A DNA stretch of 64,000 bases, taken from assembly GCF_000223985.1 (NCBI RefSeq), contig NZ_AFWV01000013.1, positions 62,001 through 126,000 on the forward strand. The letters are read 5' to 3'. Within the stretch, counting starts at the first letter, position 1. The number at the start of each line of letters is the position of its first letter. Shown here in pieces: positions 17,070 to 48,539 of the stretch. The stretch is from Thiocapsa marina 5811. Its GTDB lineage: Bacteria > Pseudomonadota > Gammaproteobacteria > Chromatiales > Chromatiaceae. A program made the position numbers and the translations under genes. The notes under the pieces were generated by a model, which was not told where the DNA came from, ran no database searches, and worked only from the letters and a program-made list of their open reading frames with translations.

Positions 17070-17265
17070 TAAACCGCGTCCAGAGCGACCTGCGTCTTTT
17101 TCATGTTGTATTCGGCCTTGGTGATTTCACCACCCATGGCGGAGACGCGGTTCAGAATTTTATATTTTTTAAAAACTTTAAACCGCGCCAGCTCCAAAAA
17201 TCGTCGAGTCTGCCGGGGCCGATCCCATCCTAAAACATCTCAAAGACCGCGCTGGGCGCGGTTTA
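17070..17265 (-). repeat. Composite TAAACCGCG repeat: A (reverse) + AT spacer + B (forward)
   Basis: Type A unit 17070-17154 (TAAACCGCG...CGCGGTTCA), a 24-bp AT-rich spacer with runs of T and A, then type B unit 17179-17265 (TAAACCGCG...CGCGGTTTA). It fills most of the 321-bp gap between the coiled-coil gene and the spermidine-synthase-like gene; nothing else was seen there. Confidence 0.9.
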
Positions 17266-17353
17266 GTTTAAATCACCTTGCTCGCGGTATTGGCTCGATG
17301 CCGAGCCGATCGGCATCCTGCGCCTTGATTCGACGCCGGAGAGGTGTTGTTGT

Positions 17354-18877
17354 TCACCGCCCCAGATCCTCGAAATAGAACTCCGAGACCAACCGCTCGA
17401 CGGGGACGTAGTTATCGGTCAAGAGCGGCAGCGCGTCGAAGGCGGTTCCGGTCCGCATCATGGGCTCGGTGACGCGCAGCCAGCGATGATCGAAACCACG
17501 CCGGGCGACGAGCGTCTCGGGCGGCTCGCGGGCATCGCTCGCGGAGATGACGAAGGTCATGCGCTCGGCCTCGGGCGGGACCATGTCCATCCAGACATGC
17601 ACGTGCTCGAACGACTCGGACAAGGTCTTCATCATGCTCTTGACCAAGCGCGGATCCGGAAAGGCGTCCAGGACGTTGAGCAGATAGATCCCGTCCGGGG
17701 CCAGCCGGGATTTTACAAGCTCCGCGTACTCATGGGTCACGAGGTGATAGGGGATGGAGATGTCGTGGAAGGCATCGGAGACGATTACGTCGTAGCACTC
17801 GGAGGGCTCTCGGGTGAGGACGATCCGCGCGTCCGCGTGGACGACGCGCATCCCTTCGGTGTCCAGGAACAGCCCATCTTCGGCCGTGCGCGTGACCAGC
17901 GGGTCCAGCTCGGCGACGGCGACGGTCGCGTTCGGGGTCCGCGAGCGGACCGAGCGGGGCAGGGTGTAGGCGCCGCCGCCCGCGAAGAACCAGCGTAGCG
18001 TCTCGGCCTTGTCTTCTCCGAAGTGCTCGAGTGCGAGCTCGTCCATCAACTGCACATAGGGGGAGATCAGCATGCCGGGCTCGCTATCGTGATTGGTGCC
18101 GTGGATGAGATGGTCCAGCACCAGGCTGCGCGCGACGCCGAGGGGAGCGCGTTCGGAATCGTCGATGACCCGAATGCAGAAATAGTTGCTTTCGCGGTCG
18201 CAGGGATTGGAGAAGCCGTTGCGCGCATCCGTGACCAGGATCAGACCGACCGCCGCGACCAGCGCGGCGACGGGCGCCACGCGCGAGCGCCCTTTGAAAA
18301 ACGGCAGTGCGAGCAGAAAGAGCCCGAGCGCGGTCCCGATGACGATGCCGCGCGTGCCCAGATACTGGATCAGCACGTAGCCCGTGATGAAGGTGCCCAG
18401 AATGCTGCCCAGCGCCGCCAGCGCGTGCATGCGTCCGACGATATGGCCGGTGCGTCGATCCATCCCCAGGGCCAGCGTCGTCAGAAGCGGCGTCACCACA
18501 CCGAGCAACACGGCCGGCATGAAGAAGAGCGCGAGGACATAGAAAAAGCTCGCGCCCAGCAGGGTCATCTCGCGCGCCTCGATGAGCGGTGCGACCAGCG
18601 TCAAGAGGAAGAGGATGCCGAGACTGAAGAGCCCGGCCAGCGCCAGCGTGATGCCGGCCGCCAGCTCGTTGCCGCCGCGATCGGCCCAGATGCCGCCGAG
18701 CCAGTTTCCGAGCGACAACCCGGCGAGGATGACGCCGATGATGGCGGTCCAGGTGTAGAGCGACACCCCGACGTACGGCGCGATCAGGCGGCCCGCGAGG
18801 ATCTCCAGGACCAGAAGGAAGGCCGAGCTGAGAAAAATGGTGACGCCGTACCAGGTGATGCGCAGACGGTCGGACAC
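17354..18877 (-). CDS. Fused membrane / spermidine-synthase-like protein
   Basis: 507 aa from GTG 18877, chosen for the GGAG 6 nt upstream; a TTG 11 codons earlier is in frame. The N-terminal half (about 1-220) has seven or eight hydrophobic helices including FLLVLEILAGRLIAPYVGVS and IIGVILAGLSLGNWLGG, as in the 'fused MFS/spermidine synthase' family. The C-terminal half is a spermidine-synthase-like Rossmann methyltransferase fold (FAGGGAYTLPRS, VAVAELDPLV, VVHADAR, YDVIVSDAFHD). The glycine-rich loop and the acidic residue after it are present. Substrate is unknown; it may not be a polyamine. Confidence 0.82.
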   Translation of the reverse strand: MSDRLRITWYGVTIFLSSAFLLVLEILAGRLIAPYVGVSLYTWTAIIGVILAGLSLGNWLGGIWADRGGNELAAGITLALAGLFSLGILFLLTLVAPLIEAREMTLLGASFFYVLALFFMPAVLLGVVTPLLTTLALGMDRRTGHIVGRMHALAALGSILGTFITGYVLIQYLGTRGIVIGTALGLFLLALPFFKGRSRVAPVAALVAAVGLILVTDARNGFSNPCDRESNYFCIRVIDDSERAPLGVARSLVLDHLIHGTNHDSEPGMLISPYVQLMDELALEHFGEDKAETLRWFFAGGGAYTLPRSVRSRTPNATVAVAELDPLVTRTAEDGLFLDTEGMRVVHADARIVLTREPSECYDVIVSDAFHDISIPYHLVTHEYAELVKSRLAPDGIYLLNVLDAFPDPRLVKSMMKTLSESFEHVHVWMDMVPPEAERMTFVISASDAREPPETLVARRGFDHRWLRVTEPMMRTGTAFDALPLLTDNYVPVERLVSEFYFEDLGR

Positions 18878-18972
18878 GATGGACTCCGAGAGTGGGCGAT
18901 CGGTCCGCAAGGATAGCGAAGGGCGGGATCCTCCACCAGAGGACCGTCCGGGCGTGTTGGGCTGGTGGATCT

Positions 18973-19150
18973 TAAACCGCGCCCGGTGCGGTATGCGGCA
19001 TGTGTTGGACTGGTTTGGCTATGCCAGCTCCGACGACTGTTGGAGTTGGCGCGGTTTAACGTATCAAAAAATAAAAAATTCCAGACTGCGCCTCACTGGG
19101 ATCGAGGATGTCTCAGAATCTATATGCACGATGCTTGCAGTCGTCCTTGT
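18973..19150 (+). repeat. Composite TAAACCGCG repeat: B (reverse) + AT spacer + decayed A
   Basis: An intact type B unit at 18973-19058, a roughly 25-bp AT-rich spacer, then about 65 bp resembling type A (CGCCTCACTGGGATC, GAGGATGTCTC) whose right terminus is lost around 19150. Confidence 0.8.
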
Positions 19151-19554
19151 CCCCGGCGAGACCGCCGGAAGGCCCTAACGGCGCTCACGTCGGCGTTTGA
19201 CCTCCGCCCATCCGAGAGGCGCTATGCCGGCGCGTCAAGCGACTGGAAGCCGCTTCGACGCCCAGCAGAAGCGGGTTCAGGGCGGGTTGCTAGAGCGTCG
19301 CGTGGAGCGCGAGCCTGCCGATTGTGGCTCCGGTGGAAGAGGACGACTGCAAGTCGTCTATCCCGGGAGGTGTCGCCGCTTCGCGACGACGGTTGGCGTT
19401 ACTTCCGGCCGGTCATCTACGCAAGGTGCGAGCGGGGAGTCCATGCGTATCGGGACAAGGCACGCCGGCGAGGCCCACCGTCCCCTCCCGTAAGTGGGCG
19501 CAACGCCGCGGCGGTGCGGAGCGGGTCCGGAGTCGGACCCACACTCGTCATGCG
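19151..19554. other. Unexplained intergenic stretch
   Basis: About 400 bp between the repeat and the DUF4340 gene. Open frames cross it on both strands, but none gives a recognisable protein or a plausible start. It contains a GACGACT-GCA-AGTCGTC inverted repeat near 19346 and several other short GC-rich hairpins. It could be a structured RNA or a decayed element; I cannot say which. Confidence 0.4.
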
Positions 19555-20619
19555 TCATTCGGCGGGTTGCGGCTCCTCGCTCAGCTCCTCCGGCATCGGC
19601 GGTGTCTCCGGGGGGCTCGAGGGCTCGACGCTTGCGGATGGATCGGCCGAGTCGTCGGCCCCAAGAAGATCCGCGACCTCGATGTCGAGCAATTCCCCGA
19701 GATCGAATTCGGAGAGTTTGAAGAACCAGGGCCGATCGGCAGCCTTCAGGACATAGTCCTGGCTATCCTCGGCCTGCGAGATCCGATAGCGCCGCTTCGA
19801 TCCGTCGGCGAGCCCGATCTCGAGATCCATCAGGGGATCCTGCTGACGGTAGGCGGGATCATCCACGACACCGAGCACGCCCCGGTAACCCAGATTGGCG
19901 AGGCGCAGCACCAGGGCCGAGACCGTCTCTTCATCGATCGGCCGATCCTCGTCCGCGAGCGCCCAGACGCCCGCTTCGTCCTTGCTCAGAATCCACTCGT
20001 TAGCGGCGATGCGGGTGATCTGCTCGCCCTCCAAGCGCAGCAGCCCGACCTCGATCCAATCATCTCGTCGCGCGGAGACGTCGGACAAGGCGAGCCGCAG
20101 CTCATAGACGGCCGGCTCCCCCGGGAGGCGCGCGAAGACGCGCCGGAAGCCGGGCGAGTCTCCGATCAGGAGACCGGCGATCGGTCCCGCCTCGCCGTCG
20201 AGCGTCAGGCGTCGCTCGAAGGCGTCGTCGGCGACCTTGAAGCGCTCGCGGGCCTCTTCGCTGGTGGCGATCGGAAGGGGTCGCTTCAGCGCGGTAAGCT
20301 CCTCGAGGACTTGCTCGACCTTGGCGCTCTGAACCGGGAGCTCGTCCAGATCCACGTCGACCCAGGTGTCGTTGCGGCGAACCAGGGTCACGGACTCGGT
20401 CCCGTCACCGTTCTCGATGCGCAGGGACTGGACCTGATCGGGCGCAATCCCGAGCAGCGGAATGTCCGCGGCGCTCGGTGCGAGTGCGCGACCGCCCCCC
20501 AGATTCAAACCGAGTGCGAGCAGGATCTGCAGGACCAGCAACCCGGCCAGCCCCATGACGATCGGCGCGAGCAGGTCCGGGCGCCAGCCGGTGTCGGATT
20601 GAACACTCATGTCGGTCAT
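19555..20619 (-). CDS. DUF4340 domain protein of the Gld-like ABC module
   Basis: 354 aa from ATG 20619 (MTDMSVQ); the open frame upstream runs into a repeat and is not used. One TM helix near residues 20-42 (LAPIVMGLAGLLVLQILLAL) is followed by a periplasmic beta-rich DUF4340 region (LRIENGDGTESVTLVRRND, ADRPWFFKLSEFDLGELL) and an acidic, Pro/Ser-rich tail. DUF4340 proteins regularly follow GldG-type proteins in proteobacteria; the function is unknown. It forms the last gene of the leftward run ABC ATPase / permease-GldG / DUF4340, though a composite repeat separates it from the fusion gene. Confidence 0.83.
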   Translation of the reverse strand: MTDMSVQSDTGWRPDLLAPIVMGLAGLLVLQILLALGLNLGGGRALAPSAADIPLLGIAPDQVQSLRIENGDGTESVTLVRRNDTWVDVDLDELPVQSAKVEQVLEELTALKRPLPIATSEEARERFKVADDAFERRLTLDGEAGPIAGLLIGDSPGFRRVFARLPGEPAVYELRLALSDVSARRDDWIEVGLLRLEGEQITRIAANEWILSKDEAGVWALADEDRPIDEETVSALVLRLANLGYRGVLGVVDDPAYRQQDPLMDLEIGLADGSKRRYRISQAEDSQDYVLKAADRPWFFKLSEFDLGELLDIEVADLLGADDSADPSASVEPSSPPETPPMPEELSEEPQPAE

Positions 20620-20627
20620 TCTCGTCT

Positions 20628-20819
20628 TAAACCGCGCTCGGCGCGGCATGCGAAGGTTTTGGATGGGATCGGCCCCGGCAGATCTGAAGACCGCCGGAGC
20701 TAGCGCGGTTTAAGGTATTAAAAAGTTTATTATTTTAAACCGCGTCTCTGCTAAGGGTTGTGGTTGTACCAAACGTCGAACTGACTCGAAAGTTAGCATG
20801 TCGCTCTGGACGCGGTTTA
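20628..20819 (+). repeat. Composite TAAACCGCG repeat: B (reverse) + AT spacer + A
   Basis: Type B 20628-20712, a 23-bp AT-rich spacer, type A 20736-20819. It lies within the leftward ABC operon, between the permease-GldG gene and the DUF4340 gene. Confidence 0.92.
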
Positions 20820-20827
20820 ACCCGGGA

Positions 20828-24683: not shown

Positions 24684-24695
24684 GATGTCTCCTGC

Positions 24696-24780
24696 TGAAC
24701 CGCGTCCCGGGCACTCGACGTCGGAATCGTCCGGGATCGGGCCTCGGCGATTCCGGGTCCGTCGGAGCGGACGCGGTTCA
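24696..24780 (+). repeat. TAAACCGCG-family repeat, type A, diverged
   Basis: 85 bp from TGAACCGCGTCC to GGACGCGGTTCA, just upstream of the GldA-like gene ribosome-binding site. Termini have T-to-G or T-to-C changes and the interior is diverged. A fragment AAACCGCGTCGAGGATC follows at about 24802. Confidence 0.65.
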
Positions 24781-24975
24781 GGACTTTTTTGTTGGGAATG
24801 GAAACCGCGTCGAGGATCGAGCGATTCGCTAACGCCGTGTCCTGTCTCGGGACAAACTCGGCTCATCGGATCTTGGCGCGGTCGAGCGTCCGCCGGGTCT
24901 CGGACGCCGTTCGGGCGCGAATTTCACCCGAGGCGGGCTCGGTATGCAAGACCCACGCATTGTTCATCATCCAGG

Positions 24976-25058
24976 CCGTAGGGTGGACGAGCGAGAGCGA
25001 AGTCCACCGAACCCCGCGCTGGCGCTGGTGGACTGCGCCGTGCTTGTCCACCCTACGG
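24976..25058. repeat. Nested palindromic repeat (GTAGGGTGGAC type)
   Basis: Outer arms CCGTAGGGTGGACGAGC (24976-24992) and GCTTGTCCACCCTACGG (25042-25058) pair with one mismatch. Inside, AGTCCACC and GGTGGACT form a second hairpin. Similar GTAGGGTGGAC palindromes are scattered through many bacterial genomes. The 490-bp gap around it (24684-25173) holds this element and the type A repeat but no gene that I can support. Confidence 0.85.
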
Positions 25059-25173
25059 CGACCTGGCCGGGTTCATGATCAAGCATTAAGGCGCCTTGAG
25101 ACGATCGGATCGCGCATGGGCGACCAGCTCGCAGCCGGGATGGGCAAGCGACCGTGCCGCCGTCCGCAGGGTG

Positions 25174-26902: not shown

Positions 26903-26929
26903 GGGAGCTCTCCTTTTTGTTCCTCAAGT

Positions 26930-27119
26930 TAAACCGCGTCCGGAGCGAGATACTCATTTTCGAGCGATCTCGACCTTTAGGCGTCCAAAAGCCTTAGCAG
27001 TGACGCGGTTTAAAATATAAATGCTTTAAGATCTTAGACCGCGTCGACTCCAGCGCTCGTGAAGTCCGCCGGGGCTGACCCCACCCAAAAACGTCGCATA
27101 CCCCGCCGGGCGCGGTCTA
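26930..27119 (-). repeat. Composite TAAACCGCG repeat: A (reverse) + AT spacer + B; supplies the gnd stop
   Basis: Type A 26930-27012, a 22-bp AT-rich spacer, type B 27035-27119 with termini TAGACCGCG/CGCGGTCTA. The last three bases (CTA, 27117-27119) are the TAG stop of gnd on the minus strand. Confidence 0.92.
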
Positions 27120-28133: not shown

Positions 28134-28172
28134 GAGGCGTTTCCCCTGTTGGCGGCTGGAGGGTCGGAGATT

Positions 28173-28256
28173 AAACCGCGCTCGGCGCGGGTTGCGGTAT
28201 TCGTGGATGGGGTCGACCCCGGCAGAATGAACAACCGTTTGAGTCGGCGCGGTTTA
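28173..28256 (-). repeat. TAAACCGCG-family repeat, type B, solo; supplies the glgX stop
   Basis: 84 bp between gnd and glgX, in reverse type B orientation (ends GTCGGCGCGGTTTA). Its last TTA (28254-28256) is the TAA stop of glgX. Confidence 0.9.
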
Positions 28257-30395: not shown

Positions 30396-30481
30396 TAAAC
30401 CGCGCCGGCTCCAGCGCTCGCTTAGTCTGCCGGGGCCGATCCCATCCAAAAAACATCGTCTATCGCATCGGGCGCGGTTCA
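30396..30481 (+). repeat. TAAACCGCG-family repeat, type B, solo; supplies a stop codon
   Basis: 86 bp, type B forward (CCGGCTCCAGCGCTCG...CATCGGGCGCGGTTCA). Its final TCA (30479-30481) is the TGA stop of the next leftward gene. Confidence 0.9.
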
Positions 30482-31246: not shown

Positions 31247-33763
31247 ATGGAATTCAGACATCATCCGACCGATTCGAGCAAGGTCCAGGCTGCGCCCGAT
31301 GACGCGCGCGATTGGACAGTCGCCGATCTGATCGACTTCGAATACTACTTGGATGCCGACGAGCGCGAGCTGCGCGAGCATCCGTCGGCGCGCAAGCGCC
31401 TCGCCGAGCGCGATCGCTCGCTCTATCTCGACGCGATCGCGCCCGAGATCGGCGATCAGCCGCCGCATACCCCGGCGCATCGGCGTCTCAGCCTGCGCCG
31501 CTGGCTGGCGGACCGCCGCAATGCGGAGCGCCCCGAGATGCGCGGTATCCTGCCGGGTGCGGCGTTCGGGAGCGCCGAGCGCCTGGTCACCCTGTTGCTT
31601 GCGATCCTCGGAGTCCTCGCCGGGATCGGCGTTGCCTCCGCGCTGCTCAGCTACGACGGAACCCGCCCGGTCAGCGTCTCCTGGTATCTTTTTCTGCTCG
31701 TCATGGTGCAGTTTCTGCTGGCGGCCTCGGTCGCGACGGCCCTGGCACTGCGTAAGGCCCGTGGTCGAGGCGCCGCTGCGCCGCCCGGCCTCCTCACGCA
31801 CGTCGTACGCCCGCTCGTCGCCAAGGCCGCGAGCTGGCTTCAGCGCCAACGGATCGGTCATGCCGCGGCCGAGATCCAGGATCAGGCGCGCGCTCGGCAG
31901 GGGCTGCTCAAGTCACAATACGCCGTCTACGGTCCGGTCTCCTATCTGCCCTTGTTGATCCCGGCCCAGATCTTCGGGGTTGCGTTCAACGTCGGCGTCA
32001 TCGTGACGACCATCCTTTTGGAATGGTTCACCGATCTGGCCTTCGGCTGGGGTTCGACGCTGAACGTCCATCCCCAAACGATCTTCGACATGACCCGATT
32101 GATCGCGCTGCCCTGGAGTTGGCTGCTCGGCGAGGGTGTCGGCTACCCGAGCCTCGAGCAGGTGGCCGGCTCGCGCATCTTCCTCGAGCACTGGGCAAGC
32201 GCCACGCCGACGCTTAAACCGGATCCGGCGCATCTGCGATCCTGGGGCTCCTTCCTGGTCCTGGCCGTGACGACTTACGGGCTTCTGCCCAGGCTGATGC
32301 TTTGGGGCGGGTCTGTCTTGGCTCGGCGCCTGATTCTCTCCCGCCTGTCTTTCACCCACAGCCGCACCCAGGCGCTCTATGCCCGCATGCTCTCGCCGCG
32401 CCTCGAGACGACGCCGAGCGGGGAACGCGCGGGCGGCGAGCGAGGCACCGAGATGCCGATTCCGGCCGCATCGAGCGCGCGCAGGACCCGCACCTCGGGG
32501 ACGGACGGCTCGGTCGAGCCGGCGCCGCCGACATCGGCGCGCCCGTGGCGCAATGCGCTGGTTCGGCGTGTCGAGCCGGGGGGCGAGGCGCCGCCGGTGC
32601 CCCCGCCCGGCGTTGCCCCCCCTGTCGATACTCCGAAACCGACTCCCGCGCCGGCTCCCCGCGCGGAGCCCGAGCAGCGACCGGCGCAGCCGCGCGAGGA
32701 CGAGGGGTCCTCGCGGCTTGCGGAAGAAACCGGAGCGGTTGTTGCCGAGGGTGGTGTCGAAGCGCCCGCACCCGGCAGGACCGAGCATGTGACCATGCCG
32801 TCGGTTCTCCAGCCCGAGCCGGAACCCGAGCCCGAATCGCCGGCGGTGCCGGCAGAGCCTGCGCCTGCTGCGCCGGTCATCCCCGAGCCCGCACCGGAAC
32901 CCGAACCGACCCCTGTCCGTGATCGACCGGCATCCGATCCTGCAGAGCCGGCGGTCCCTCCGCGGTCGGTTGCTCGGCTCGAGCCCCGGCCGTGTGCCGA
33001 GCCGAAGACGGATGAGACCGCGCAAAGGCCTGCCGAGGCGGAAGCTCGTCCGGTCGAGCGACCTGCTGCGCCCGCGATCCCTGCGACGCCCCCAGCCAAG
33101 CCGAAAGAGGCGAAGGCACCACCCGCCGTTTCGAAGGAAACGAAGCTGAAGGGCCCAGAAAAGCCGCCGGCTAAGCCGCCTTCGCAACCCTCGCCTCGGG
33201 CGAAGCTCTCGGAGACACCGACACATCCCTCCGCGCCGGTTCCGTCACAGGCGGCCGTTGTTGCTCCGACACCGCCGACGTCGTTGCCCGCGCAAGGCAT
33301 TCGTTTTGCTCCGGACGCCTGTCTGCTTTTGCTTCACGTCGACGTCGACGACATCCTCGAAGCCGAGGACCGCCCGCGTCTGGAGCAGATGCTGATGCAC
33401 CTCACCGGGTGGCAGGTTGCGGCGACGGCGACCGTCGGCGCCGGCACCGCGATGACCGACGAGGCGCTCGGCATCCTGGAGCGCGGCGACTGGCAGGCAC
33501 CGCCGCCCCGGGTCGTCGTGGTCGAGGACGGCTCTCAGCCCCCGATCACGGAGAGCCTGCGCTTCCTGCGCGAGCTGCGCGCCGCGGCTGGGGCCCACGC
33601 TCAGATCCTACTCGCCTTGGTCGGCGATCCGACCGACGATGATCGTCTGCCGCCGATGCGTCCCTTCGACTATACGGATTGGCAGCGCAAGATCGATCAG
33701 ATGGCCGACCCTTATCTGCGACTAGAGATGCTTGCGCCGCCTCACGAGGATGGAGACGACTGA
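31247..33763 (+). CDS. DUF2868 membrane protein with long Pro/Glu/Ala-rich insert
   Basis: 838 aa. The N-terminal 400 residues have the DUF2868 layout: an amphipathic start, TM pairs near 105-130 and 145-165, then further TMs near 235-260 and 340-360. Residues about 395-685 are a low-complexity Pro/Glu/Ala/Arg linker (PEPEPEPESPAVPAEPAPA). The C-terminal 140 residues are folded again (IRFAPDACLLLLHVDVDDIL, PPRVVVVEDGSQPPITESLRFLREL). It overlaps the GTPase gene as TGATG, so the two are coupled and probably act together at the membrane. The function is unknown. Confidence 0.8.
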   Translation: MEFRHHPTDSSKVQAAPDDARDWTVADLIDFEYYLDADERELREHPSARKRLAERDRSLYLDAIAPEIGDQPPHTPAHRRLSLRRWLADRRNAERPEMRGILPGAAFGSAERLVTLLLAILGVLAGIGVASALLSYDGTRPVSVSWYLFLLVMVQFLLAASVATALALRKARGRGAAAPPGLLTHVVRPLVAKAASWLQRQRIGHAAAEIQDQARARQGLLKSQYAVYGPVSYLPLLIPAQIFGVAFNVGVIVTTILLEWFTDLAFGWGSTLNVHPQTIFDMTRLIALPWSWLLGEGVGYPSLEQVAGSRIFLEHWASATPTLKPDPAHLRSWGSFLVLAVTTYGLLPRLMLWGGSVLARRLILSRLSFTHSRTQALYARMLSPRLETTPSGERAGGERGTEMPIPAASSARRTRTSGTDGSVEPAPPTSARPWRNALVRRVEPGGEAPPVPPPGVAPPVDTPKPTPAPAPRAEPEQRPAQPREDEGSSRLAEETGAVVAEGGVEAPAPGRTEHVTMPSVLQPEPEPEPESPAVPAEPAPAAPVIPEPAPEPEPTPVRDRPASDPAEPAVPPRSVARLEPRPCAEPKTDETAQRPAEAEARPVERPAAPAIPATPPAKPKEAKAPPAVSKETKLKGPEKPPAKPPSQPSPRAKLSETPTHPSAPVPSQAAVVAPTPPTSLPAQGIRFAPDACLLLLHVDVDDILEAEDRPRLEQMLMHLTGWQVAATATVGAGTAMTDEALGILERGDWQAPPPRVVVVEDGSQPPITESLRFLRELRAAAGAHAQILLALVGDPTDDDRLPPMRPFDYTDWQRKIDQMADPYLRLEMLAPPHEDGDD

Positions 33764-35196
33764 TGTCCGGGAAGATTCCAAGACTGGCGATCATGGGGCA
33801 CCCGAATGCCGGAAAGTCCTCCGTGGTTGCGACCCTCACCGAAAACGATCTGATTCAGATCGATAAACGCGCGGGTACGACGATCGAATCCAACGTCTAC
33901 CCGGTCATCATCGACGGACGGCCGGTGATCGAATTTATCGATACCCCCGGCTTTCAGAATCCCAACGCGATCCTCGAATGGTTTCAGGCCCAGAGCGGCA
34001 AACGCGATCTGGCGCGGGCGTTCGTGGCCGCCCATCGGACGGATCCCCTCTTCACGCACGACTGCGAGCTCCTCGAGCCGGTTGCCGAGGGTGCCGCCAT
34101 CATCCTGGTGGTCGACGGCTCAAAACGCATCAAGGAAAAGGATCGGGTCGAGATCGAGCTGTTGCGGCTGACCGCACGCCCGCGCATGGCGATTCTGAAC
34201 AACCTGACCAACAACACGCGCTATATGACCCAGTGGCGCGATGCGCTCTGCAAGGCGTTCAACTCGGTGCGTGACTTCAACGCCCATCGCGCCACCTATG
34301 CAGAGCGCGTGCGATTGCTTCAGGCGCTCAAGAGCATCGATCAGCGCTGGGAGCCGCTCGTCGAGGAGGCCATCCATGCGTTCGAGCACGACTGGAACCG
34401 GCGTACCGATCAGGCCGTGACCACGATCCTGGATCTGCTCAAGGAGTCGCTCACCTTCAAGGCATCAAAGACGGTCAAGGAGAGCAAGCTGGTCTTTCAG
34501 AGCGGACGGGATCGGGTGAAGGACGACGTGATGGCGGCATTCGAGAACGGGCTGCGCCAGCTCGAGGTGAAGGCGCAGGAGCAGATCCGTGCGAATTTTC
34601 GCCACCATGTCTGGCACATGCCCCCGGATTCGATCCTCGGCAAGGATCTGCTCTCCGAGGACGTGAATCAGGCGCTGGGGCTCTCCAAACGCCAGCTTGC
34701 CTTGGTCGGAATGGCGGCGGGTGCGGCTTCGGGCGCGACCATCGACATCTCGACGGCCGGGCATACCTTCGGTGCCGGCGCCCTGATCGGTGCGGCGACC
34801 GGCGGCGTCCTGGGATTCGTCGGCAGCAAGGCGCTGGCCAAGCTCGACATCGAGCGAGCCCCGGGAACGCAGCGTTTTACTGCCGGTCCGGTGCACAACC
34901 CACGCTTTCCCTTCGTCCTTCTGGATCGCATCGTGCTGTACAGCGCGCGGGCCATGAACTGGTCGCACGGTCGTCAGGCCGCGGAGGAAGATGCGTCCGA
35001 TAAGGTCCCCGACAAGGAGATCCGCCGGGCCGGATTTACCGAGGAGCTGCCCGCCGCACAGCAGCGCGATCTGGCGCGATTCTTCAACGCCGCCAGAAAG
35101 GGCAAATCCGAGCGCGAGGAGGAGTGTCGCGCCATCATCAGCGACATTCTGCACGGACTGGCGGTGAGCGAGATCGACAGTCGTGCGGATCTTTAA
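33763..35196 (+). CDS. DUF3482 family membrane-associated GTPase
   Basis: 477 aa from ATG 33763, which overlaps the DUF2868 stop. An Era-like G domain occupies about residues 1-180: G1 GHPNAGKSS (12-20), switch I around RAGTT, and G3 DTPGF (60-64). At the expected G4 position the sequence is LNNLTNNTR, not NKxD, so guanine specificity may be altered. The DUF3482 C-terminus has a long helical part and a glycine/alanine-rich, possibly membrane-inserting stretch (GMAAGAASGATIDISTAG...GALIGAATGGVLGF). Its TAA stop is the left end of a type B repeat. The cellular role is unknown. Confidence 0.85.
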   Translation: MSGKIPRLAIMGHPNAGKSSVVATLTENDLIQIDKRAGTTIESNVYPVIIDGRPVIEFIDTPGFQNPNAILEWFQAQSGKRDLARAFVAAHRTDPLFTHDCELLEPVAEGAAIILVVDGSKRIKEKDRVEIELLRLTARPRMAILNNLTNNTRYMTQWRDALCKAFNSVRDFNAHRATYAERVRLLQALKSIDQRWEPLVEEAIHAFEHDWNRRTDQAVTTILDLLKESLTFKASKTVKESKLVFQSGRDRVKDDVMAAFENGLRQLEVKAQEQIRANFRHHVWHMPPDSILGKDLLSEDVNQALGLSKRQLALVGMAAGAASGATIDISTAGHTFGAGALIGAATGGVLGFVGSKALAKLDIERAPGTQRFTAGPVHNPRFPFVLLDRIVLYSARAMNWSHGRQAAEEDASDKVPDKEIRRAGFTEELPAAQQRDLARFFNAARKGKSEREEECRAIISDILHGLAVSEIDSRADL

Positions 35197-35466
35197 ACCG
35201 CGCCCGGTGCGGTATGCGTCATTTGGTGGATGGCTTGGCCGCGCCGGCTCCGACGACGGTCGGAGCCGGCGCGGTTTAAAGGATTAAAAATCTTAAATTC
35301 TAAACCGCGTCTCACTGGGATCAAGGATATCTCCGAAGCTAAATGAACAATGAAAACTACGCATGTCGCTCTGGACGCGGTTTAAACCGCGTTACGACAA
35401 AGATCGGAAAGATCCTTGAGTCCGACACAAGATGACAATGACGCATTTCACGCTGGACGCGGTTTA
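35194..35466 (+). repeat. Composite TAAACCGCG repeat: B (reverse) + AT spacer + A + A
   Basis: Type B 35194-35278, a 22-bp AT spacer, type A 35301-35384, and a second type A 35383-35466 that shares the central TA. The B unit contains a perfect stem GCGCCGGCTCCGAC/GTCGGAGCCGGCGC with a 4-nt loop. The first TAA is the GTPase stop, and the last A unit ends 2 nt before the bioA ATG, so the bioA leader lies within repeat sequence. Confidence 0.95.
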
Positions 35467-35468
35467 GG

Positions 35469-38022: not shown

Positions 38023-38213
38023 TAAACCGCGTCCAGAGCGAGATGCTCACTTTCGCGTGAGTTCGACGTTTGGTGCATCCGCAGCTTGTAGCGGAGCGCG
38101 GTTCAAAACCATCCATTTTTTAATCTCTTAAACCGCGCGGGCTCCAGCGGTCGTCAAATCAGCCGGGGCCGACCCCACCCAAAAACATCGCATACCGCAC
38201 CGGGCGCGGTTTA
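38023..38213 (-). repeat. Composite TAAACCGCG repeat: A (reverse) + AT spacer + B; supplies the rsgA stop
   Basis: Type A 38023-38105, a 23-bp AT-rich spacer, type B 38129-38213. The last TTA (38211-38213) is the TAA stop of rsgA. Confidence 0.93.
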
Positions 38214-39224: not shown

Positions 39225-39228
39225 CGGC

Positions 39229-39522: not shown

Positions 39523-39729
39523 GGATGGGACTCCGGAGGGTTGTTGGAAAACGACAGGGCGATCTCGGTCGTCCGGGGCATCGTGCCCGATTCCGGCAAT
39601 GTCCAGCCGGGGAGCTGCAAGGGTCGCCAGCAGGCGATAACGCCGCTACCCTAGCCGATCATGGTGTCGACCGCCGAATTTGACCAGGCGGGCGGCTCAC
39701 CCGTTCACGGATCGCAGGAGAGCAGGCAT

Positions 39730-40278
39730 TTGACCAAGAACGAGAATAATCTGATCTGGCTCGATCTCGAGATGACGGGGCTCGACCCCGCGACCGATCG
39801 TATCCTCGAGATCGCCACCATGATCACCGACAGCGATCTTCGCATCCTGGCCGAGGGTCCCGTCGTTGCGATCCATCAGCCCGAGGCCGTTCTTGCCGGC
39901 ATGGACGCGTGGAATCGCGACCATCACGGCCGCTCCGGCCTGCTCGATCGGGTGCGCGCGAGCACGCAAAGCGTGTCCGACGCCGAATCGGCGACGCTGC
40001 GCTTCCTCGCGGATGTCGTCCCGCCGGGCGCCTCGCCCTTGTGCGGAAACAGCATCTGTCAGGACCGCCGCTTCCTCGCGCTCTGGATGCCGAAGCTCGA
40101 GGCCTATTGCCACTATCGCAATCTGGACGTGAGCACGCTGAAGATCCTCGCGCAACGCTGGGCGCCCGACGTTGCGAGCGCGTTCAAGAAAGAGTCGCGA
40201 CACTTGGCCCTCGACGACATCCGCGAGTCCATCGAGGAGCTCAAGCATTATCGCACGCATCTTTTGCGGGAGCTTTAA
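39730..40278 (+). CDS. orn: Oligoribonuclease
   Basis: 182 aa from TTG 39730, chosen because AGGAG lies upstream and it gives the family N-terminus and length (E. coli Orn 181). DEDDh exonuclease motifs: DLEMTGLDP, the [11 protein letters not shown] region with Asp, and [14 protein letters not shown]. It degrades di- to pentanucleotides to mononucleotides in the cytoplasm. Its TAA is the left terminus of a type B repeat. Confidence 0.95.
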
Positions 40279-40361
40279 ACCGCGCCCGGTGTTGTATGCG
40301 TGATGTGTTGACATGGTTCGGCCGCCTCAGCTCCGGTGACTGTCGAAGCTGGTGCGGTTTA
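40276..40361 (+). repeat. TAAACCGCG-family repeat, type B; stop codons for orn and queG
   Basis: 86 bp between two convergent genes. Left TAA (40276-40278) ends orn on the plus strand; right TTA (40359-40361) ends queG on the minus strand. An internal CAGCT/AGCTG stem is preserved. Confidence 0.93.
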
Positions 40362-41405: not shown

Positions 41406-41630
41406 TCGAGGTCGTCGTGTCTCGGCGATTGCGGATTCCGGCAAGAATAGACCGCATTCGAAGCCGACTCGAACGCTTTGTTCGGGAACGGCGCCGTCGA
41501 CTCAACCCATCGAGCATATCGGGAGCCATGAACGCCGAGCGCCTCACGATACCCTGCCTCATCGACGCGACCCGTCTTCGGAGTCATGTGTCTCGCGTCG
41601 TCTGCGATCGATTCCGTGCTGGAGTCTCGA

Positions 41631-43169: not shown

Positions 43170-43678
43170 TGGAGCAACGGCTGCCCGATCCCGATGCACA
43201 GCTGGCCTTCGGAGCACGGCTCGCCGCGCTCTTGCCGCCGCGACTGATCGTCTACCTCGAGGGCGACCTGGGGACCGGAAAGACGACCCTCACCCGCGGC
43301 ATTCTCGCGGGACTCGGTCATCGCGGCGCCGTGCGCAGCCCGACCTACACCCTGCTCGAACCCTACGAGATCGGGGAGAGGCGTCTCAATCACCTGGATC
43401 TCTATCGCCTCGGAGATCCGCAGGAGCTCGAGTATCTGGGCCTGCGCGACCTGCTCGCCGAGGATGCGGTCTGGATGGTGGAGTGGCCCGAACGCGGTCT
43501 CGGGATGTTGCCGTCGCCCGACCTGGTGATCGCGATCGAATACGCCGCCGCCGGCCGTCGCCTGCTTCTCTCGGCCCGAACGCCGTCTGGCGAGTCCGTG
43601 CTCGAGGGGTTGGTCGGTCTCGGTTGCGCGGACTCGGCGAGCTGCGCATCTCCTGAGAAGTCGGATGTAATCCAATGA
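43169..43678 (+). CDS. tsaE: tRNA threonylcarbamoyladenosine synthesis ATPase TsaE
   Basis: 169 aa from ATG 43169 (GGAGG 7 nt upstream); the adjacent ATG at 43166 is equally in frame. Walker A GDLGTGKTT, then RSPTYTLLEPYEIGE, HLDLYRL and VWMVEWPERG are the TsaE signatures. With TsaB, TsaC and TsaD it makes t6A37 on tRNAs. Sits between nnrD and amiB, as in E. coli. Confidence 0.94.
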   Translation: MEQRLPDPDAQLAFGARLAALLPPRLIVYLEGDLGTGKTTLTRGILAGLGHRGAVRSPTYTLLEPYEIGERRLNHLDLYRLGDPQELEYLGLRDLLAEDAVWMVEWPERGLGMLPSPDLVIAIEYAAAGRRLLLSARTPSGESVLEGLVGLGCADSASCASPEKSDVIQ

Positions 43679-43754
43679 TGCAACGTGGAAAGCCGTTTCT
43701 CGGCATGCTATCTTTCAACGTACGATCGATCGGATCGGGAGCAACCGGAAGGCC

Positions 43755-45119
43755 GTGCGTGTGAACAGGCTGATCTCGCCGCTTCTTTTTTTGATGCTGC
43801 TCGCTGTTTCGGCGCAGGCCGTCTACGCGGAGCAGGCATCGGTGCAGGGTACGCGGGTCTGGACCGATCCGGAAAAGACCCGGTTGGTCTTCGAGACCTC
43901 CTCGGCGATCACCCACCGGATCTTTCCGCTGGACGAGCCCGATCGTCTCGTCATCGACCTCGACGATGCACGCATGCAGAGCAATCTGCCGAAGGTCGAC
44001 CTCGGCGACCCCGTGCTGGTCGGCCTGCGCGGCGGGGTGAGGGGCAGCTCACACCTGCGTATCGTCCTGGATCTCAAGCAAGCTGTCAGGGCCAAGAGCT
44101 TTACACTGAGCCCGAACGAGCGCTACGGACATCGGCTGATCATCGACCTGACACCGAAGAATGGTTCGAGCGTGCGGCGTGTCGCGCTTCCATCGTTTCC
44201 GAATTCGGCGGTTCGCAAGAGCGGGGCGCGTCGGGCTGACGGTCCTACGATCGTCGTCGCGATCGACGCCGGTCACGGCGGCGAGGATCCCGGTGCCATC
44301 GGTGCCGCGGGAACCCTGGAGAAGGACGTCACCCTTGCGATCGCGCGCGAGCTCGCCAAGCTCGTCGAGCGCGAGCCGGGTCTCGAGGCGCTGCTGATCC
44401 GCGACGGCGATTATTACGTCGGGCTGCAGGAACGCATCGCGATCGCGCGCGAGCGTCGCGCCGATCTCTTCGTGTCGATCCATGCCGATGCCTTTACCAA
44501 CGCGACTGCGAGAGGCTCGTCGGTCTACACGCTGTCCTTCAGCGGGGCGAGCAGCGAGGCGGCGAAATGGCTGGCGAGTCGCGAGAACAGCGCGGATCTG
44601 ATCGGCGGCGTCGATCTCGCGACCAACGATGACCTGCTGGCGACGGTGCTGATGGATATGACGCAGAACGCGACCATCGAGCACAGCACCGAGGCCGCGG
44701 CCATGGTTCTCGCCAATCTCGGTCGGTTGGGCGTGGTCCATCGCGGCGACGTGCAGCGAGCGGGGTTTGCCGTTCTCAAGGCGCCGGACGTGCCTTCGGT
44801 CCTGGTCGAGGTCGCCTTCATCAGCAACCCCGAAGAAGAGAAGCGACTGCGTGATCGCGGCCATCAGCGGGAGCTCGCCGAGGCGATTATGGCCGGCGTG
44901 TCGGGGTACTTCCGCAAGTATCCGCCTCACGGGATGCTCGTCGATGCCTCGTCGCAGGGCGGTGCAGGCGCGCGCGAATACGTCATCGGTCCGGGCGATA
45001 CCCTCTCCGGGATTGCCAAGCGGCACAGCGTGAGCATCTCGGCCCTGCGCGCCCGCAACGGTCTGAACGACGACATGATCCGGGTAGGGCAAGTGCTGGC
45101 GATTCCGGAGGATTCCTGA
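43755..45119 (+). CDS. amiB: N-acetylmuramoyl-L-alanine amidase
   Basis: 454 aa. Signal peptide (LISPLLFLMLLAVSAQAVYA), AMIN domain about 30-130 (LVFETSSAITHRIF), amidase_3 catalytic domain from about 165 (VVAIDAGHGGEDPGAIG, SIHADAF, zinc His/Glu set) and a C-terminal LysM (YVIGPGDTLSGIAKRHSVS). It cleaves peptide side chains from septal murein for daughter-cell separation. The start is GTG 43755 or GTG 43761, both behind GGAAGG. Position between tsaE and mutL points to AmiB. Confidence 0.93.
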   Translation: MRVNRLISPLLFLMLLAVSAQAVYAEQASVQGTRVWTDPEKTRLVFETSSAITHRIFPLDEPDRLVIDLDDARMQSNLPKVDLGDPVLVGLRGGVRGSSHLRIVLDLKQAVRAKSFTLSPNERYGHRLIIDLTPKNGSSVRRVALPSFPNSAVRKSGARRADGPTIVVAIDAGHGGEDPGAIGAAGTLEKDVTLAIARELAKLVEREPGLEALLIRDGDYYVGLQERIAIARERRADLFVSIHADAFTNATARGSSVYTLSFSGASSEAAKWLASRENSADLIGGVDLATNDDLLATVLMDMTQNATIEHSTEAAAMVLANLGRLGVVHRGDVQRAGFAVLKAPDVPSVLVEVAFISNPEEEKRLRDRGHQRELAEAIMAGVSGYFRKYPPHGMLVDASSQGGAGAREYVIGPGDTLSGIAKRHSVSISALRARNGLNDDMIRVGQVLAIPEDS

Positions 45120-45153
45120 GGCCGGTTGCGCCGAGTCTTCAGCCGCCTGCCTC

Positions 45154-45186
45154 CAGCCGTCAGCCGTCAGCCGTCAGTCGTCAGCC
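45154..45186. repeat. CAGCCGT heptamer tandem repeat
   Basis: About 4.7 copies of the 7-mer CAGCCGT (one is CAGTCGT) in the amiB-mutL gap. Confidence 0.95.
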
Positions 45187-45300
45187 TCGCGCTGCAGGCG
45201 ACGGGCGTGCCGCACCTGTTCGGCATAAGGGCGATTCCCCTGCGGTTACACAGCGTCCGACCTCGACCGTACGTGCGTTCGGAGTCGTGCTGTGCTGATA

Positions 45301-45323
45301 GCAGGCGGCAGGAGGCAGGAGGC
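45301..45323. repeat. GCAGGAG heptamer tandem repeat
   Basis: Three copies of GCAGG(C/A)G before the mutL start. They are partly complementary to the GCCGCCTGCC preceding the CAGCCGT repeat, so the two arrays flank the gap as an imperfect inverted pair. Confidence 0.8.
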
Positions 45324-45363
45324 TCCCCTTGCCCGCGCCCCGCGCTTCTGTTCCCATCCGTGC

Positions 45364-47202
45364 ATGTCCAGACCGATCCGGATCCTCTCCAGTCATCTCG
45401 TCAATCAGATCGCCGCGGGCGAGGTTGTCGAGCGTCCGGCCGCGGTTGCCAAGGAGTTGATCGAGAACAGTCTCGACGCCGGGTGCACACGGGTGGAGAT
45501 CGATGTGGAGCGCGGCGGCATCAAGCGGCTGCGCGTGCGCGACGACGGGCGCGGCATCCCGCCGGACGAGCTGGTCTTGGCGCTCTCGCGTCATGCCACC
45601 AGCAAGGTCGCCGAGTTGAGCGATCTGGAGGCGGTCGCGACCCTTGGGTTCCGCGGCGAGGCACTGCCGAGCATCGCCTCGGTGAGTCGGCTGCGTCTGA
45701 TCTCGCGCAGCCGCGACGCGTCCACGGCCCTCGAGGTCACGGTCGGCAGCGACGGGGCCTTGGGGGAGCCGCGGCCGGCCGCACATCCGCCGGGGACCAG
45801 CGTGGATGTCCAGGATCTCTTCTACAACACCCCGGCACGCCGTAAGTTTCTGCGCACCGAAAAGACCGAGCTCGGCCATCTGGAGCAGGTGGTGCGGCGC
45901 ATCGCCTTGGCGCGTCCGGAGATCGCCTTTCAGTTGCGCCACAACGGCAGAACAGTCTACGACCTGCCGGCCGCGGCCGACGCTGCGGGGCAACGCGCCC
46001 GTCTCGAGACCTTGCTCGGAAACGCCTTTGCCGAGCAGGCATTGACCCTGGACGAGGAGGCCATCGATCTGCGCCTGCGGGGTTGGGTCGTGCGGCCCGC
46101 GTTCTCCCGCAGTCAGGCCGATCAGCAGTTCTTCTACGTCAACGGACGCATGGTCCGCGACAAGCTGGTGAGCCATGCGGTGCGACAGGCCTTCAGCGAC
46201 CTGCTCCATCACGGCCGGCATCCCGCCTATCTGTTGTTTCTCGAGCTGCCTGCGCGCATGGTCGACTGCAATGTTCATCCGGCCAAGCACGAGGTGCGTT
46301 TCCGGGAAGGCCGACAGGTGCACGACTTCATCTTTCGGGTGCTTCAGCGGCGTCTTTCGGCCGGGGTACTCGGCGAGCCGGTGCAAGTCGCCGAGACGCC
46401 GAGCACGTTTGCGCCGGGCTCGGCGCCGCGCGGGCACGAGGGGCCGCCGGCCCGTTTCGGGGGCGTTTCGGGCCCCACGCTGCATCTTCCCCTGAGCGTC
46501 GGCGACGGACGCGGCGGATATTCCGAACGCTTGCGTGCCGATCTGGCGTTTCAGCAGCCGCCCGCGGGAGCCGGGGACGACGGCACGCTCGAGCGCACAA
46601 GCCGCGAGGACGGACAGGCGCATCCGCTCGGTTACGCCGTTGCACAGATCAACGGGGTCTACCTTCTGGCCCAGACACCGGACGGTCTGATCATCGTCGA
46701 CATCCATGCAGCCCACGAACGCATCGGCTACGAGCGGCTGAAGACGAGCTGGCGCTCCGGCGCCGTGATTCGCCAGCCGCTGTTGGTCCCGGTGCCCGTC
46801 TCGGTAGCCCCGCGCGAGGCCGAGCTGATCGCATCCCGGAGAGATGACCTGATCGCGGTGGGTCTGGTCATCGACCGTATCGATGCCGGTACCCTGGTGG
46901 TGCGCGAGGTCCCGGCATTGCTGCGGCAAGCCGATCACGAGGGCCTGGTGCGCGATCTTCTCGCGGATCTGGCCGTCCACGGCAGCAGTGCCCGACTCGA
47001 CGAGGCCGTCAACGCGGTCCTCTCCACCATGGCCTGCCATGGCGCCGTGCGGGCCAATCGACGCCTGACCCTGGAGGAGATGAACGGATTGCTGCGCGAC
47101 ATGGAGCGTGTCGAGCGGATCGATCAATGCAATCACGGCCGTCCGACCTGGATCCGGGTGGGCTACGACGAGCTCGATCGCTGGTTCTCGCGCGGGCGCT
47201 GA
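45364..47202 (+). CDS. mutL: DNA mismatch repair protein MutL
   Basis: 612 aa. GHKL ATPase motifs are [24 protein letters not shown] and [10 protein letters not shown]; a transducer domain, a variable linker (about 335-425) and a C-terminal dimerisation domain follow. The C-terminus reads AACHGAVRA-like ([15 protein letters not shown]), without the DQHA(X)2E(X)4E nuclease motif, as expected for methyl-directed gammaproteobacterial MutL. Links MutS recognition to MutH/UvrD. The ATG is chosen by homology; upstream frame is not used. Confidence 0.95.
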
Positions 47203-47216
47203 GTCGGGATACCCAT

Positions 47217-48218
47217 GTGACGGATTCATCCGAAGGCCCCGTGCACGCAGGATCGAGCGACGTGCCCGAGCAACGTCCCCTCGCGATCCTGCTCATGGGC
47301 CCGACCGCGTCCGGCAAGACGGATCTGGCCGTGGAGCTGGTGCAGCGCCTGCCGTGCGAGATCGTCAGCGTCGATTCTGCGATGGTGTATCGGGGCATGG
47401 ATATCGGTACGGCCAAGCCGACGCCCGATGTGCTTGCCCGTGCGCCGCATCGCTTGATCGATATCCTGGATCCCGCCGAGGCCTACTCGACGGCGCGCTT
47501 TCGTGATGACGCCCTCGCGGCCATGGCGCAGATCAGCGCGCAGGGCCGGATCCCGCTCTTGGTCGGCGGCACCATGCTCTATTTCAAGGCGCTGCAACAG
47601 GGCTTGGCCCGACTTCCGAGCGCGGATCCGCTGCTCCGCCAAGCCTTGTCCGACGAGGCCGCCTTCATCGGCTGGTCCGCGATGCACGCGCGACTGAAGC
47701 GGCTGGACCCGCCCGCGGCGGCTCGGATCCACCCCAACGATCCGCAGCGCATTCAGCGTGCGTTGGAGATTCACGCCCTGACGGGCCGGTCGATGAGCGC
47801 ACTGATCGCCTCGGCCGCCGAGAGCGCCGAGCTGCCGTATCGCCTCCTCAAATTGGTGCGCGCCCCGGCGGATCGCGACGTGCTGCGCGAGCGCATCGCA
47901 TCGCGCTTCCGCACGATGCTGGAGCAAGGTCTGGTCGATGAGGTCGCGCGTCTGCGCGCACGCGGCGATCTCGCCGCGGACCTCCCGTCGATGCGTTCGG
48001 TCGGGTATCGTCAGGTCTGGAGCTATCTCGACGGCGCGCTCGATGCCGAGGCGATGTGCCTGAAAGGCATCGTTGCCTCCAGACAACTCGCCAAGCGCCA
48101 GCTCACCTGGCTGCGTGCCGAGACGGCGACCCATTGGCTCGCCGACGATCCGGATCCGCTCGACGCGGCACTGCGTCTGATCGGGATCGTGCGATCAACG
48201 TCGCCGCATCCGCGTTGA
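47217..48218 (+). CDS. miaA: tRNA dimethylallyltransferase
   Basis: 333 aa from GTG 47217, 14 nt after mutL. P-loop [11 protein letters not shown], then [19 protein letters not shown], a MiaA insertion domain and the [11 protein letters not shown] tail. It transfers dimethylallyl to A37 of UNN-reading tRNAs. The N-terminus has about 20 extra residues before the P-loop, so an internal start is possible. Co-directional with hfq but separated from it by an unusually long 491-bp gap. Confidence 0.94.
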
Positions 48219-48455
48219 CGCATTTCGATGCGAGTCTTCCGGGTTGAACGCCTGGCGCGTTCCGGTGTCTTCTACCCGTCGGTTTGATCGCGGCGCCGTC
48301 CGGCGTTGTCGTCGGATACATGGCACTCTACTTGCTAGCGTTTGTCGTCAACATCGTCAAGGTGTTGCGGCGACGATGCCGATGTGCTTTTTTGCTTCGA
48401 CAAGGATCGGAGCGATGCGCGGTGGTCTGGTGAAAGTGCAGCTTTTCGACGACAC

Positions 48456-48539
48456 TAAACCGCGTCCGGAGCGACCTGCGTCGTTTTCATCGTGCGTTTG
48501 GCTTCGGAGACATCCTCGATCCCGGTGAGACGCGGTTTA
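48456..48539 (-). repeat. TAAACCGCG-family repeat, type A, solo
   Basis: 84 bp (TAAACCGCGTCCGGAGCGACC...GTGAGACGCGGTTTA) inserted in the miaA-hfq gap. The other parts of the 48219-48709 gap hold the 17-bp repeat before hfq and no recognised gene. Confidence 0.92.

What the first reader, a model, noticed from the sequence alone, without database searches (positions are those of the whole stretch)
17070..48539. Two-part intergenic repeat family with a fixed internal order
Seen: twelve loci (start positions 8876, 17070, 18973, 20628, 24696, 26930, 28173, 30396, 35194, 38023, 40276, 48456) carry 83-87 bp units bounded by TAAACCGCG and CGCGGTTTA. Two unrelated interiors exist: type A (...GCATGTCGCTCTGGACGCGGTTTA when forward) and type B (with CCGGGGCCGATCCCATCC). 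In six loci the two are joined, always as B-reverse, 22-25 bp of AT-rich sequence, A-forward (or the mirror image). The A/B junction itself is an inverted repeat around the AT spacer and could extrude a cruciform. Inference: a non-autonomous element family of composite structure, not explained by any gene here and possibly undescribed.
Basis: partly seen in the sequence, partly recalled or inferred. Interest (0 to 1): 0.78.

Follow-up and report, generated by a model that had tools for sequence, protein, structure and literature searches.

The report
Two-armed IS630-type mini-transposon in Chromatiaceae
The repeats are copies of a roughly 192-base non-coding mobile DNA element, two hairpin arms joined by a short AT-rich linker, that has spread hundreds of times through genomes of purple sulfur bacteria, most likely by borrowing an IS630-type transposase, and that often sits exactly at the stop codon of a gene.

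Summary
The "two-part" repeat is one ~192-bp mobile element: two ~85-bp arms, head-to-head in 62 of 62 pairs, joined by a ~23-bp AT-rich spacer. Exact-ended arms number 308 in the host genome, occur in 28 of 210 genomes of its family, and in no other genome of a 369-genome class sample. Empty alleles in related genomes show insertion into Y-TA-R with TA duplicated. The outer ends match both ends of a ~1.27-kb IS630-family insertion sequence found in five genomes of the family, but at the same setting none of 46 other IS630 stretches of the genus, 32 Y1 stretches or 63 IS630 loci from outside the family. No close copy was found in the host genome. So the elements are best read as IS630-type MITEs. 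Single-arm copies look mostly like deletion products: 9 of 11 orthologous sites with a composite have a one-unit allele elsewhere.

Unusual features: each arm's two tips form a covarying 11-bp stem, and element ends coincide with gene stop codons 2.6 times as often as free YTAR sites. Closest published designs are RUP, Correia and CIR. I found no description of this family in the open-access library searched.

The parts
8876..8978 (.). 103-bp remnant of an older two-arm element (TAAACCGCG at one end, CGCGGTTCA at the other)
   Evidence: six other genus members carry a longer two-arm form there, two of them (G009, G003) with an extra insert; G002 lacks it
17070..17265 (-). composite: A-like arm reversed (17070-17154), spacer 17155-17178, B arm forward (17179-17265)
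   Evidence: empty allele CTAG in G004
18973..19110 (+). composite with a complete B-like arm (18973-19058), spacer, and a decayed A-like arm
   Evidence: profile match 18973-19110
20628..20819 (+). intact composite: B arm 20628-20712, spacer 20713-20735, A arm 20736-20819
   Evidence: 39 other full-length places at 79-86% in the own genome; G009 keeps only the B arm
24696..24780 (.). older TGAACCGCG-type unit, apparently followed by a decayed second arm (by eye)
   Evidence: weak profile match
26930..27119 (-). composite: A arm reversed (26930-27012), spacer 27013-27034, B arm (27035-27119)
   Evidence: orthologues keep the B arm only (G009, G003, G005) or the A arm only (G001); G004 and G006 have a different unit
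28172..28256 (+). solo B arm; a long minus-strand reading frame stops at its right end
   Evidence: composite at the same site in G001, G005, G006, solo in G004
30396..30481 (-). solo B arm
   Evidence: solo in G001; G004 has a composite and G003 the other arm at about the same place, though the grouping did not join them
35194..35384 (+). composite: B-like arm 35194-35278, spacer 35279-35300, A-like arm 35301-35384
35383..35466 (.). extra single unit inserted at the terminal TA of the preceding composite
   Evidence: orthologue G003 has TTAG and no extra unit
38023..38213 (-). composite: A arm reversed (38023-38105), spacer 38106-38128, B arm (38129-38213)
   Evidence: composite also in G009 and G004; absent in G005 and G006 (allele TCAG)
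40276..40361 (+). solo B-like arm, with long reading frames stopping at both ends
   Evidence: composite in G001, G003, G004; empty TTAA in G009, G005
48456..48539 (-). solo A-like arm
   Evidence: composite in G009 and G004, the other arm solo in G003, empty CTAA in G001

Best explanation
The repeats are copies of a non-autonomous IS630/Tc1-mariner-type element (a MITE) of about 192 bp. SHOWN: two ~85-bp arms, outer ends outward, ~23-bp AT-rich spacer; hundreds of arms in several genomes; insertion into Y-TA-R with duplication of TA; outer ends like both ends of a ~1.27-kb IS630 of the same family of bacteria; composite and single-arm alleles at the same orthologous site. INFERRED: a transposase of that IS630 group moved the composite in trans by its two outer ends. 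Copies are tolerated largely at gene ends, because both ends usually begin with TAA, so insertion at the TA of a TAA or TAG codon leaves a stop codon. Single arms arise mainly when slippage or recombination between the repeated 9-11-bp tips deletes one arm plus spacer. The tips of each arm stay complementary, probably because each arm is constrained as a hairpin.
For: Full-length composite, spacer included, at 39 other places in the own genome at 79-86% (40 of 350 candidates scored). Head-to-head order in 62 of 62 pairs, stretches of 13 genomes. First flanking base outward is A or G in about 95% of ends, with no longer target duplication beyond single cases. Empty alleles at 8 orthologous sites have a gap of exactly 2 bases, and 5 of the 8 read YTAR: CTAA, TTAA, CTAG, CTAG, TTAG. 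The partner protein is an IS630 transposase: NCBIfam NF033545 at 155-171 bits, cut-off 100; PF13358 and PF13592. Both partner ends match the arm outer-end profile in 8 of 30 close-relative loci (5 genomes, 7 distinct elements), against 0 of 46 other IS630 stretches of the genus and 0 of 32 Y1 stretches at all settings, and 0 of 63 IS630 relatives outside the family (1 of 63 at the loosest setting). One-unit alleles at 9 of 11 composite sites; at the 48456 site both possible single arms and an empty allele exist. Stop codons: at 35 of 124 element ends the longest open frame (at least 150 codons) stops exactly at the element's first three bases, against 227 of 2116 ends at free YTAR sites, P = 3e-7. 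Composites up to about 98% alike within G009 suggest recent amplification there.
Against: The close transposase is absent (E <= 1e-20) from the own genome and from nine of the ten other genus members, among them the arm-richest genomes, and only 6 of the 12 genomes that have it carry exact-ended arms. So the transposase that moved these copies in this genus was not seen. 3 of 8 empty alleles are not YTAR. The outer ends of both arms are mostly nearer to the IS left end than to its right end (100 of 124 arms left, 5 right, 19 ties), so a plain internal deletion keeping one left and one right end does not explain them; base 10 alone would fit such an origin (left ends T in 7 of 9, right ends C in 6 of 7). 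By eye the one IS copy printed has no inner tips, and their origin is unexplained. The first partner element was picked because its ends matched; the others are independent of that.
Confidence: 0.9

Rival explanations
1. REP/REPIN-type repeats moved by a Y1 (RAYT) transposase: each arm a large REP, each composite a REPIN.
For: Inverted doublets plus singlets resemble REPINs; Y1 transposases occur in all 11 genus genomes, 100 matches.
Against: In 20 neighbourhoods profile-scanned, no arm lies within 1 kb of the Y1 domain; in 32 stretches (30 distinct places of the 100 matches, so a part only) no paired outer ends. Y1 genes are also present in G010, which has no element. TA duplication at YTAR points to a DDE/IS630 mechanism.
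Confidence: 0.03
2. Each ~85-bp arm is itself a mobile element with its own matching 11-bp tips, and the composite is a fused pair; solos are single-arm insertions rather than deletion products.
For: Tips agree within an arm but not between the two outer ends of a composite at position 10. One single unit (35383) sits at a TA that is empty in G003. Arms combine in several pairings. Four site groups have only solos.
Against: At 9 of 11 composite sites another genome has a one-unit allele, which deletion explains simply; both alternative single arms of one composite exist at the 48456 site. Composites have a narrow spacer length, and the common arm types pair only A-like with B-like (53 of 62 pairs; the other 9 involve rarer arms).
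Confidence: 0.2
3. A host-selected regulatory or RNA element (terminator, mRNA 3'-end stabiliser or processed RNA) whose hairpins are kept for function rather than as a mobile parasite.
For: Covarying 11-bp stem; position at gene ends; one terminator-like site (28190-28176) and one promoter-like site (35324-35297) lie inside elements.
Against: No conserved pairing inside the stem across 43 arm clusters. In the 20 kb scanned, terminator-like and promoter-like sites are no more frequent than in shuffles (8 against 9.4; 2 against 2.2). Copies differ between related genomes. No Rfam match at gathering scores.
Confidence: 0.08

Closest known systems
RUP (repeat unit of pneumococcus) and its proposed partner IS630-Spn1
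   Same: 107-bp non-coding repeat in about a hundred copies, TIRs like an IS630 element, insertion at TA (passages of PMC2229807 and PMC3049150).
   Different: RUP is described as a single 107-bp unit; here two ~85-bp arms, each capped by its own tips, joined by a spacer. No sequence comparison with RUP was made.
Correia / NEMIS elements of Neisseria
   Same: Short MITE with TA at its termini, 24-bp TIR and target duplication (Table 1 of PMC2229807 as seen in passages).
   Different: Other bacterial repeats than CIR are said there to have no arms or linker. Promoter roles are known for Correia (passages of PMC10969869); none is shown here. No sequence comparison was made.
CIR repeats of Caulobacter and Brucella
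   Same: Two long inverted repeats forming two arms joined by a linker, TA at the termini (PMC2229807, passages).
   Different: CIR is said there to resemble MITEs only partly, with the mobility mechanism open; here TA duplication and an IS630 partner are shown. No sequence comparison was made.
REPINs / BIMEs with RAYTs
   Same: Inverted doublets and singlets, hundreds of copies (REPIN features recalled; BIME/REP from the abstract start of PMC2817692 in a search listing).
   Different: Insertion with TA duplication and no RAYT association found.

Membership tests
MITE | terminal inverted repeats | tested here: met
   Both outer ends read TAAACCGCG inward, with a shared motif further in
MITE | short, no transposase gene | tested here: met
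   192-bp consensus
MITE | target-site duplication | tested here: met
   TA; 8 empty sites with a gap of 2, 5 of 8 read YTAR
MITE | autonomous element with matching ends | tested here: met
   IS630 group in the same family of bacteria, 8 of 30 loci with both ends, controls 0 of 46, 0 of 32 and 0 of 63 at the 14-bit settings; no close copy in the own genome; whether the copies are active was not tested
MITE | mobilised in trans by that transposase | not testable with these tools
   needs a transposition assay
IS630 / Tc1-mariner (partner element) | DDE_3 domain and NCBIfam IS630 equivalog above cut-off | tested here: met
   (three proteins)
IS630 / Tc1-mariner (insertion) | TA target with TA duplication | tested here: met
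REP/REPIN (RAYT) | RAYT gene flanked by the repeat | tested here: not met
   0 of 32 Y1 stretches with paired outer ends; 0 of 20 neighbourhoods with an arm within 1 kb; 30 of 100 Y1 places were examined
CIR | two hairpin arms joined by a linker | tested here: met
   architecture only
CIR | CIR sequence and GANTC motif | not tested
   no CIR sequence was compared
RUP / Correia | sequence identity with those repeats | not tested
   their sequences were not compared

The most novel reading that the evidence does not exclude
Each ~85-bp arm is a functional unit in its own right: a hairpin kept by selection (tips covary over 11 bp while interiors diverge beyond recognition) and able to transpose alone. 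The composite would then be a REPIN-like dimer built on a DDE (IS630) system instead of a Y1 system, with ends that double as stop codons so that gene ends become a safe landing site.
Probability: 0.2. Interest if true: 0.7.

Novelty: new variant of a known kind. Interest (0 to 1): 0.5.

Why it matters
It is a very abundant, apparently unreported repeat family of purple sulfur bacteria, with an identifiable transposase family, clean empty sites and many alleles that differ between related genomes. That makes it a good natural system for asking how MITEs multiply, why their hairpins are conserved, and how parasitic DNA can avoid harm by sitting at stop codons. Hundreds of copies, many at gene ends, may also affect mRNA 3' ends and gene annotation in this family.

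Tried and rejected
RAYT/REP origin: not supported. Known RNA family: none at gathering scores. Viruses and plasmids: no match for the unit pattern in IMG/VR contigs and none for the composite in PLSDB plasmids; both outputs warn that records of this or a very near genome may be left out. Idea that A arms come from the IS left end and B arms from the right end (suggested by base 10): not supported by overall identity of the last 24 bases, 100 of 124 arms nearer to the left-end set, 5 to the right-end set, 19 ties (the sets hold 9 and 7 sequences and typical differences are 2 of 24 bases). Isolated outer ends bracketing a gene: 18 isolated ends in about 0.98 Mb, none bracketing a gene on inspection of the list. 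Junction cruciform as the conserved feature: not favoured at the tips, not excluded further in. Promoter- and terminator-like sites: no excess over shuffles in 20 kb.

Limits. One search scored 40 of 350 candidates. Units were oriented by the outer-end motif itself and 17 of 175 ambiguous units were dropped, so the strength of that motif is partly by construction; and the IS ends show it independently. The unit profile was built from units picked by their tips, which inflates tip conservation. In one search many loci had been fetched because they matched a composite; one search uses chromosome stretches instead, though those of G138, G042, G028, G147, G151 and G153 were chosen near known units. 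One search used the 229 of 458 comparisons with well-aligned flanks, and three of its eight arm assignments rest on modest margins. One search counts orthologous copies more than once and left out 12 ends that do not begin with a stop triplet and ends with short flanks; the test uses three genomes.
Full report
WHAT IS THERE. The twelve loci are real, with corrections listed under the observation check. Profiles built from composites and from each arm match the joined loci and the single arms in the window, though A and B profiles with the strict cut-off miss the decayed ones. The intact composite at 20628-20819 is 192 bp: B arm 85 bp, spacer 23 bp, A arm 84 bp. The same 192 bp, spacer included, occurs at 39 other full-length places in the host genome at 79-86% identity, one of them in the window (40 of 350 candidates scored), so the composite is the repeating unit. 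Aligned copies end sharply at TAAACC...GGTTTA.

DISTRIBUTION. The host genome has 5.59 Mb in 62 contigs. Ten of 11 genomes of the genus have a match, the own genome included. The exact unit pattern TAAACCGCGN{62,72}CGCGGTTTA occurs 308 times in the own genome, 581 in G003, 470 in G009, 264 in G042 of another genus, and in 28 of 210 family genomes (10 of 61 genera), while the backwards control gives 0 in these genomes. In a class sample only the own genome matched, 1 of 369. The family appears to be Chromatiaceae: transposase relatives with identities equal to those of unnamed family members are titled Allochromatium humboldtianum, Imhoffiella purpurea, Halochromatium glycolicum, Thiorhodococcus mannitoliphagus and a Thiocystis MAG (which also lists more distant relatives in other phyla), and the two names looked up belong to Chromatiaceae. 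That these are the same genomes as the unnamed handles is my inference. The host genus was not named by any search.

ANATOMY. Unit length is narrow, 82-88 bp in 44 of 45 units of the first count, although interiors differ widely (44 clusters among 307 distinct units). Each arm has an outer end with a GCAT..CGC motif before CGCGGTTTA and a different inner end (in one search units were oriented by that motif). In one search, 76 of 77 pairs have the outer ends outside, with a 23-bp spacer in 57 of 77. In chromosome stretches of 13 genomes 62 of 62 pairs do, 39 of 62 with 23 bp, beside 86 single arms. Four common arm types make up 53 of the 62 pairs and combine only A-like with B-like (22, 21, 9 and 1); the other nine pairs involve rarer arms. 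Within an arm the first 11 bases of both ends pair and covary: position 2 is A-T in 31 and G-C in 11 of 43 cluster representatives, 43 of 43 paired against 35.1 expected; position 10 is T-A in 29 and C-G in 8, 39 of 43 paired against 31.6; no pairing above expectation is seen at positions 12-19. In composites, position 10 agrees within an arm (28 of 38 and 37 of 46 variant cases) but not between the two outer ends (4 of 67) or the two inner ends (11 of 65). Over positions 1-12, within-arm agreement exceeds all 300 shuffles (34 against at most 30; 45 against at most 37), and the other combinations do not. Against this, the two inner ends share bases at positions 14 and 16 (44 of 76, 54 of 75), so a longer junction repeat is not excluded. 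So the arm hairpin is the better supported structure. Since arm types are few in the genus, these counts are not independent events.

INSERTION SITES. The base just outside the element is A or G in about 95% of ends, and no duplication longer than TA exceeds shuffles except single cases. Regions orthologous to the window and beyond were compared in ten genomes, the own included. Of 458 flank comparisons, 229 had clean flanks; they form 17 site groups. Eight have an empty allele with a gap of exactly two bases: CTAA, TTAA, CTAG, CTAG and TTAG at five; TCAG, CGAG and a mixed set without TA at three. The filled alleles usually carry TA at both ends. This is the TA duplication of the IS630/Tc1-mariner group. 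That bacterial IS630 itself prefers CTAG is recalled; a strong preference of the IS630-superfamily element ISY100 for TA targets is in the abstract start of PMC6400869 (search listing).

COMPOSITES AND SOLOS. Eleven of the 17 groups have a composite in at least one genome, and nine of these have a one-unit allele in another; which arm remains is clear at eight of the nine, at three of them by a modest margin. At the 20628 site five genomes have the composite and G009 exactly the B arm. At the 48456 site G009 and G004 have the composite, G003 keeps one arm, the own genome the other, and G001 is empty. At the 26930 site G004 and G006 carry a different unit, so that group is not simple. Precise joins inside the repeated tips suggest slippage or recombination (inference).

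PARTNER TRANSPOSASE. Y1 (RAYT) transposases were tested first and not supported. A search for PF13358 in the genus gave 48 matches in 9 of 11 genomes. Of the first 30 loci read, one (L154, G007) had outer-end-like termini at both ends of a ~1.27-kb element flanked by CTA...TAG. Its relatives occur in 12 of 210 family genomes, and many of their ends match the arm outer-end profile. With one rule for all sets, both ends in the right geometry occur in 8 of 30 close-relative loci (5 genomes; two loci are the same element; many others are broken or at contig ends), in 0 of 29 and 0 of 17 other IS630 stretches of the genus, which with L154 cover the 48 matches, in 0 of 32 Y1 stretches, and in 0 of 63 relatives outside the family at the two stricter settings or 1 of 63 at the loosest. 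The protein is an IS630 transposase by NCBIfam and Pfam. Against a simple story: the own genome and nine of the ten other genus members lack a close copy, and both arms mostly resemble the IS left end.

STOP CODONS. In the window, at 8 of 24 element ends the longest of the three open frames is at least 150 codons and stops exactly at the element's first three bases, TAA, TAG or TGA. Over six genomes it is 62 of 215 ends in that frame against 14 and 14 in the other two (orthologues not removed). At unoccupied YTAR sites of G009, G042 and G138 the three frames are nearly equal, and the rate is 227 of 2116 ends against 35 of 124 at elements of those genomes (P = 3e-7), that is 10.7% against 28%. 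The other two frames are rarer at elements than at free sites (13 of 124 against 391 of 2116, P = 0.02). Because the element usually begins with TAA at both ends, insertion at the TA of a TAA or TAG codon leaves a stop codon. Whether this is targeting or survival of harmless insertions cannot be told; survival is the simpler reading.

COMPARISON WITH PRINT. RUP is a 107-bp MITE proposed to be moved by IS630-Spn1; Correia and RUP have TA termini; CIR has two arms and a linker (passages of PMC2229807; PMC3049150). A 2024 review of prokaryotic MITEs and the Thiomargarita genome paper were seen only in passages (PMC10969869; PMC4853749), which do not mention this family. Searches by taxon and type gave nothing relevant. 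The element works like, and meets the tested criteria of, an IS630-type MITE; the doubled, self-capped arms are the new part.

Noticed in passing
8876-8978 and its orthologues in G009 and G003: In G009 and G003 the spacer of the orthologous two-arm element holds an extra ~200-bp sequence with another inverted repeat (GTGGACAAGCG...GTCCACC type).
   Followed up: no
26930-27119 orthologous site in G004 and G006: A different unit with TAAACCGCAT...ATGCGGTTTAG tips sits where the own genome has the composite, so the site may have been hit more than once.
   Followed up: no
32473-32559: ARAGORN reports a tRNA-Asp (gtc) on the minus strand inside a region of long reading frames; not checked whether it is real.
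   Followed up: no
48648-48696: Short 17-bp tandem repeat (GGCGACCACAACAATCG, 2.9 copies) beside the 48456 unit.
   Followed up: partly
L319 3450-3968 (G009): Two composites lie 133 bp apart, about 1.3 kb from a weak PF13358 match.
   Followed up: no
G009 IS630 copies (L160, L167, L169, L175): A separate IS630 group with TACCTCATATAGGCACAAGC-type ends has several copies with equal scores in G009 and could be active; its ends do not match the arms.
   Followed up: partly
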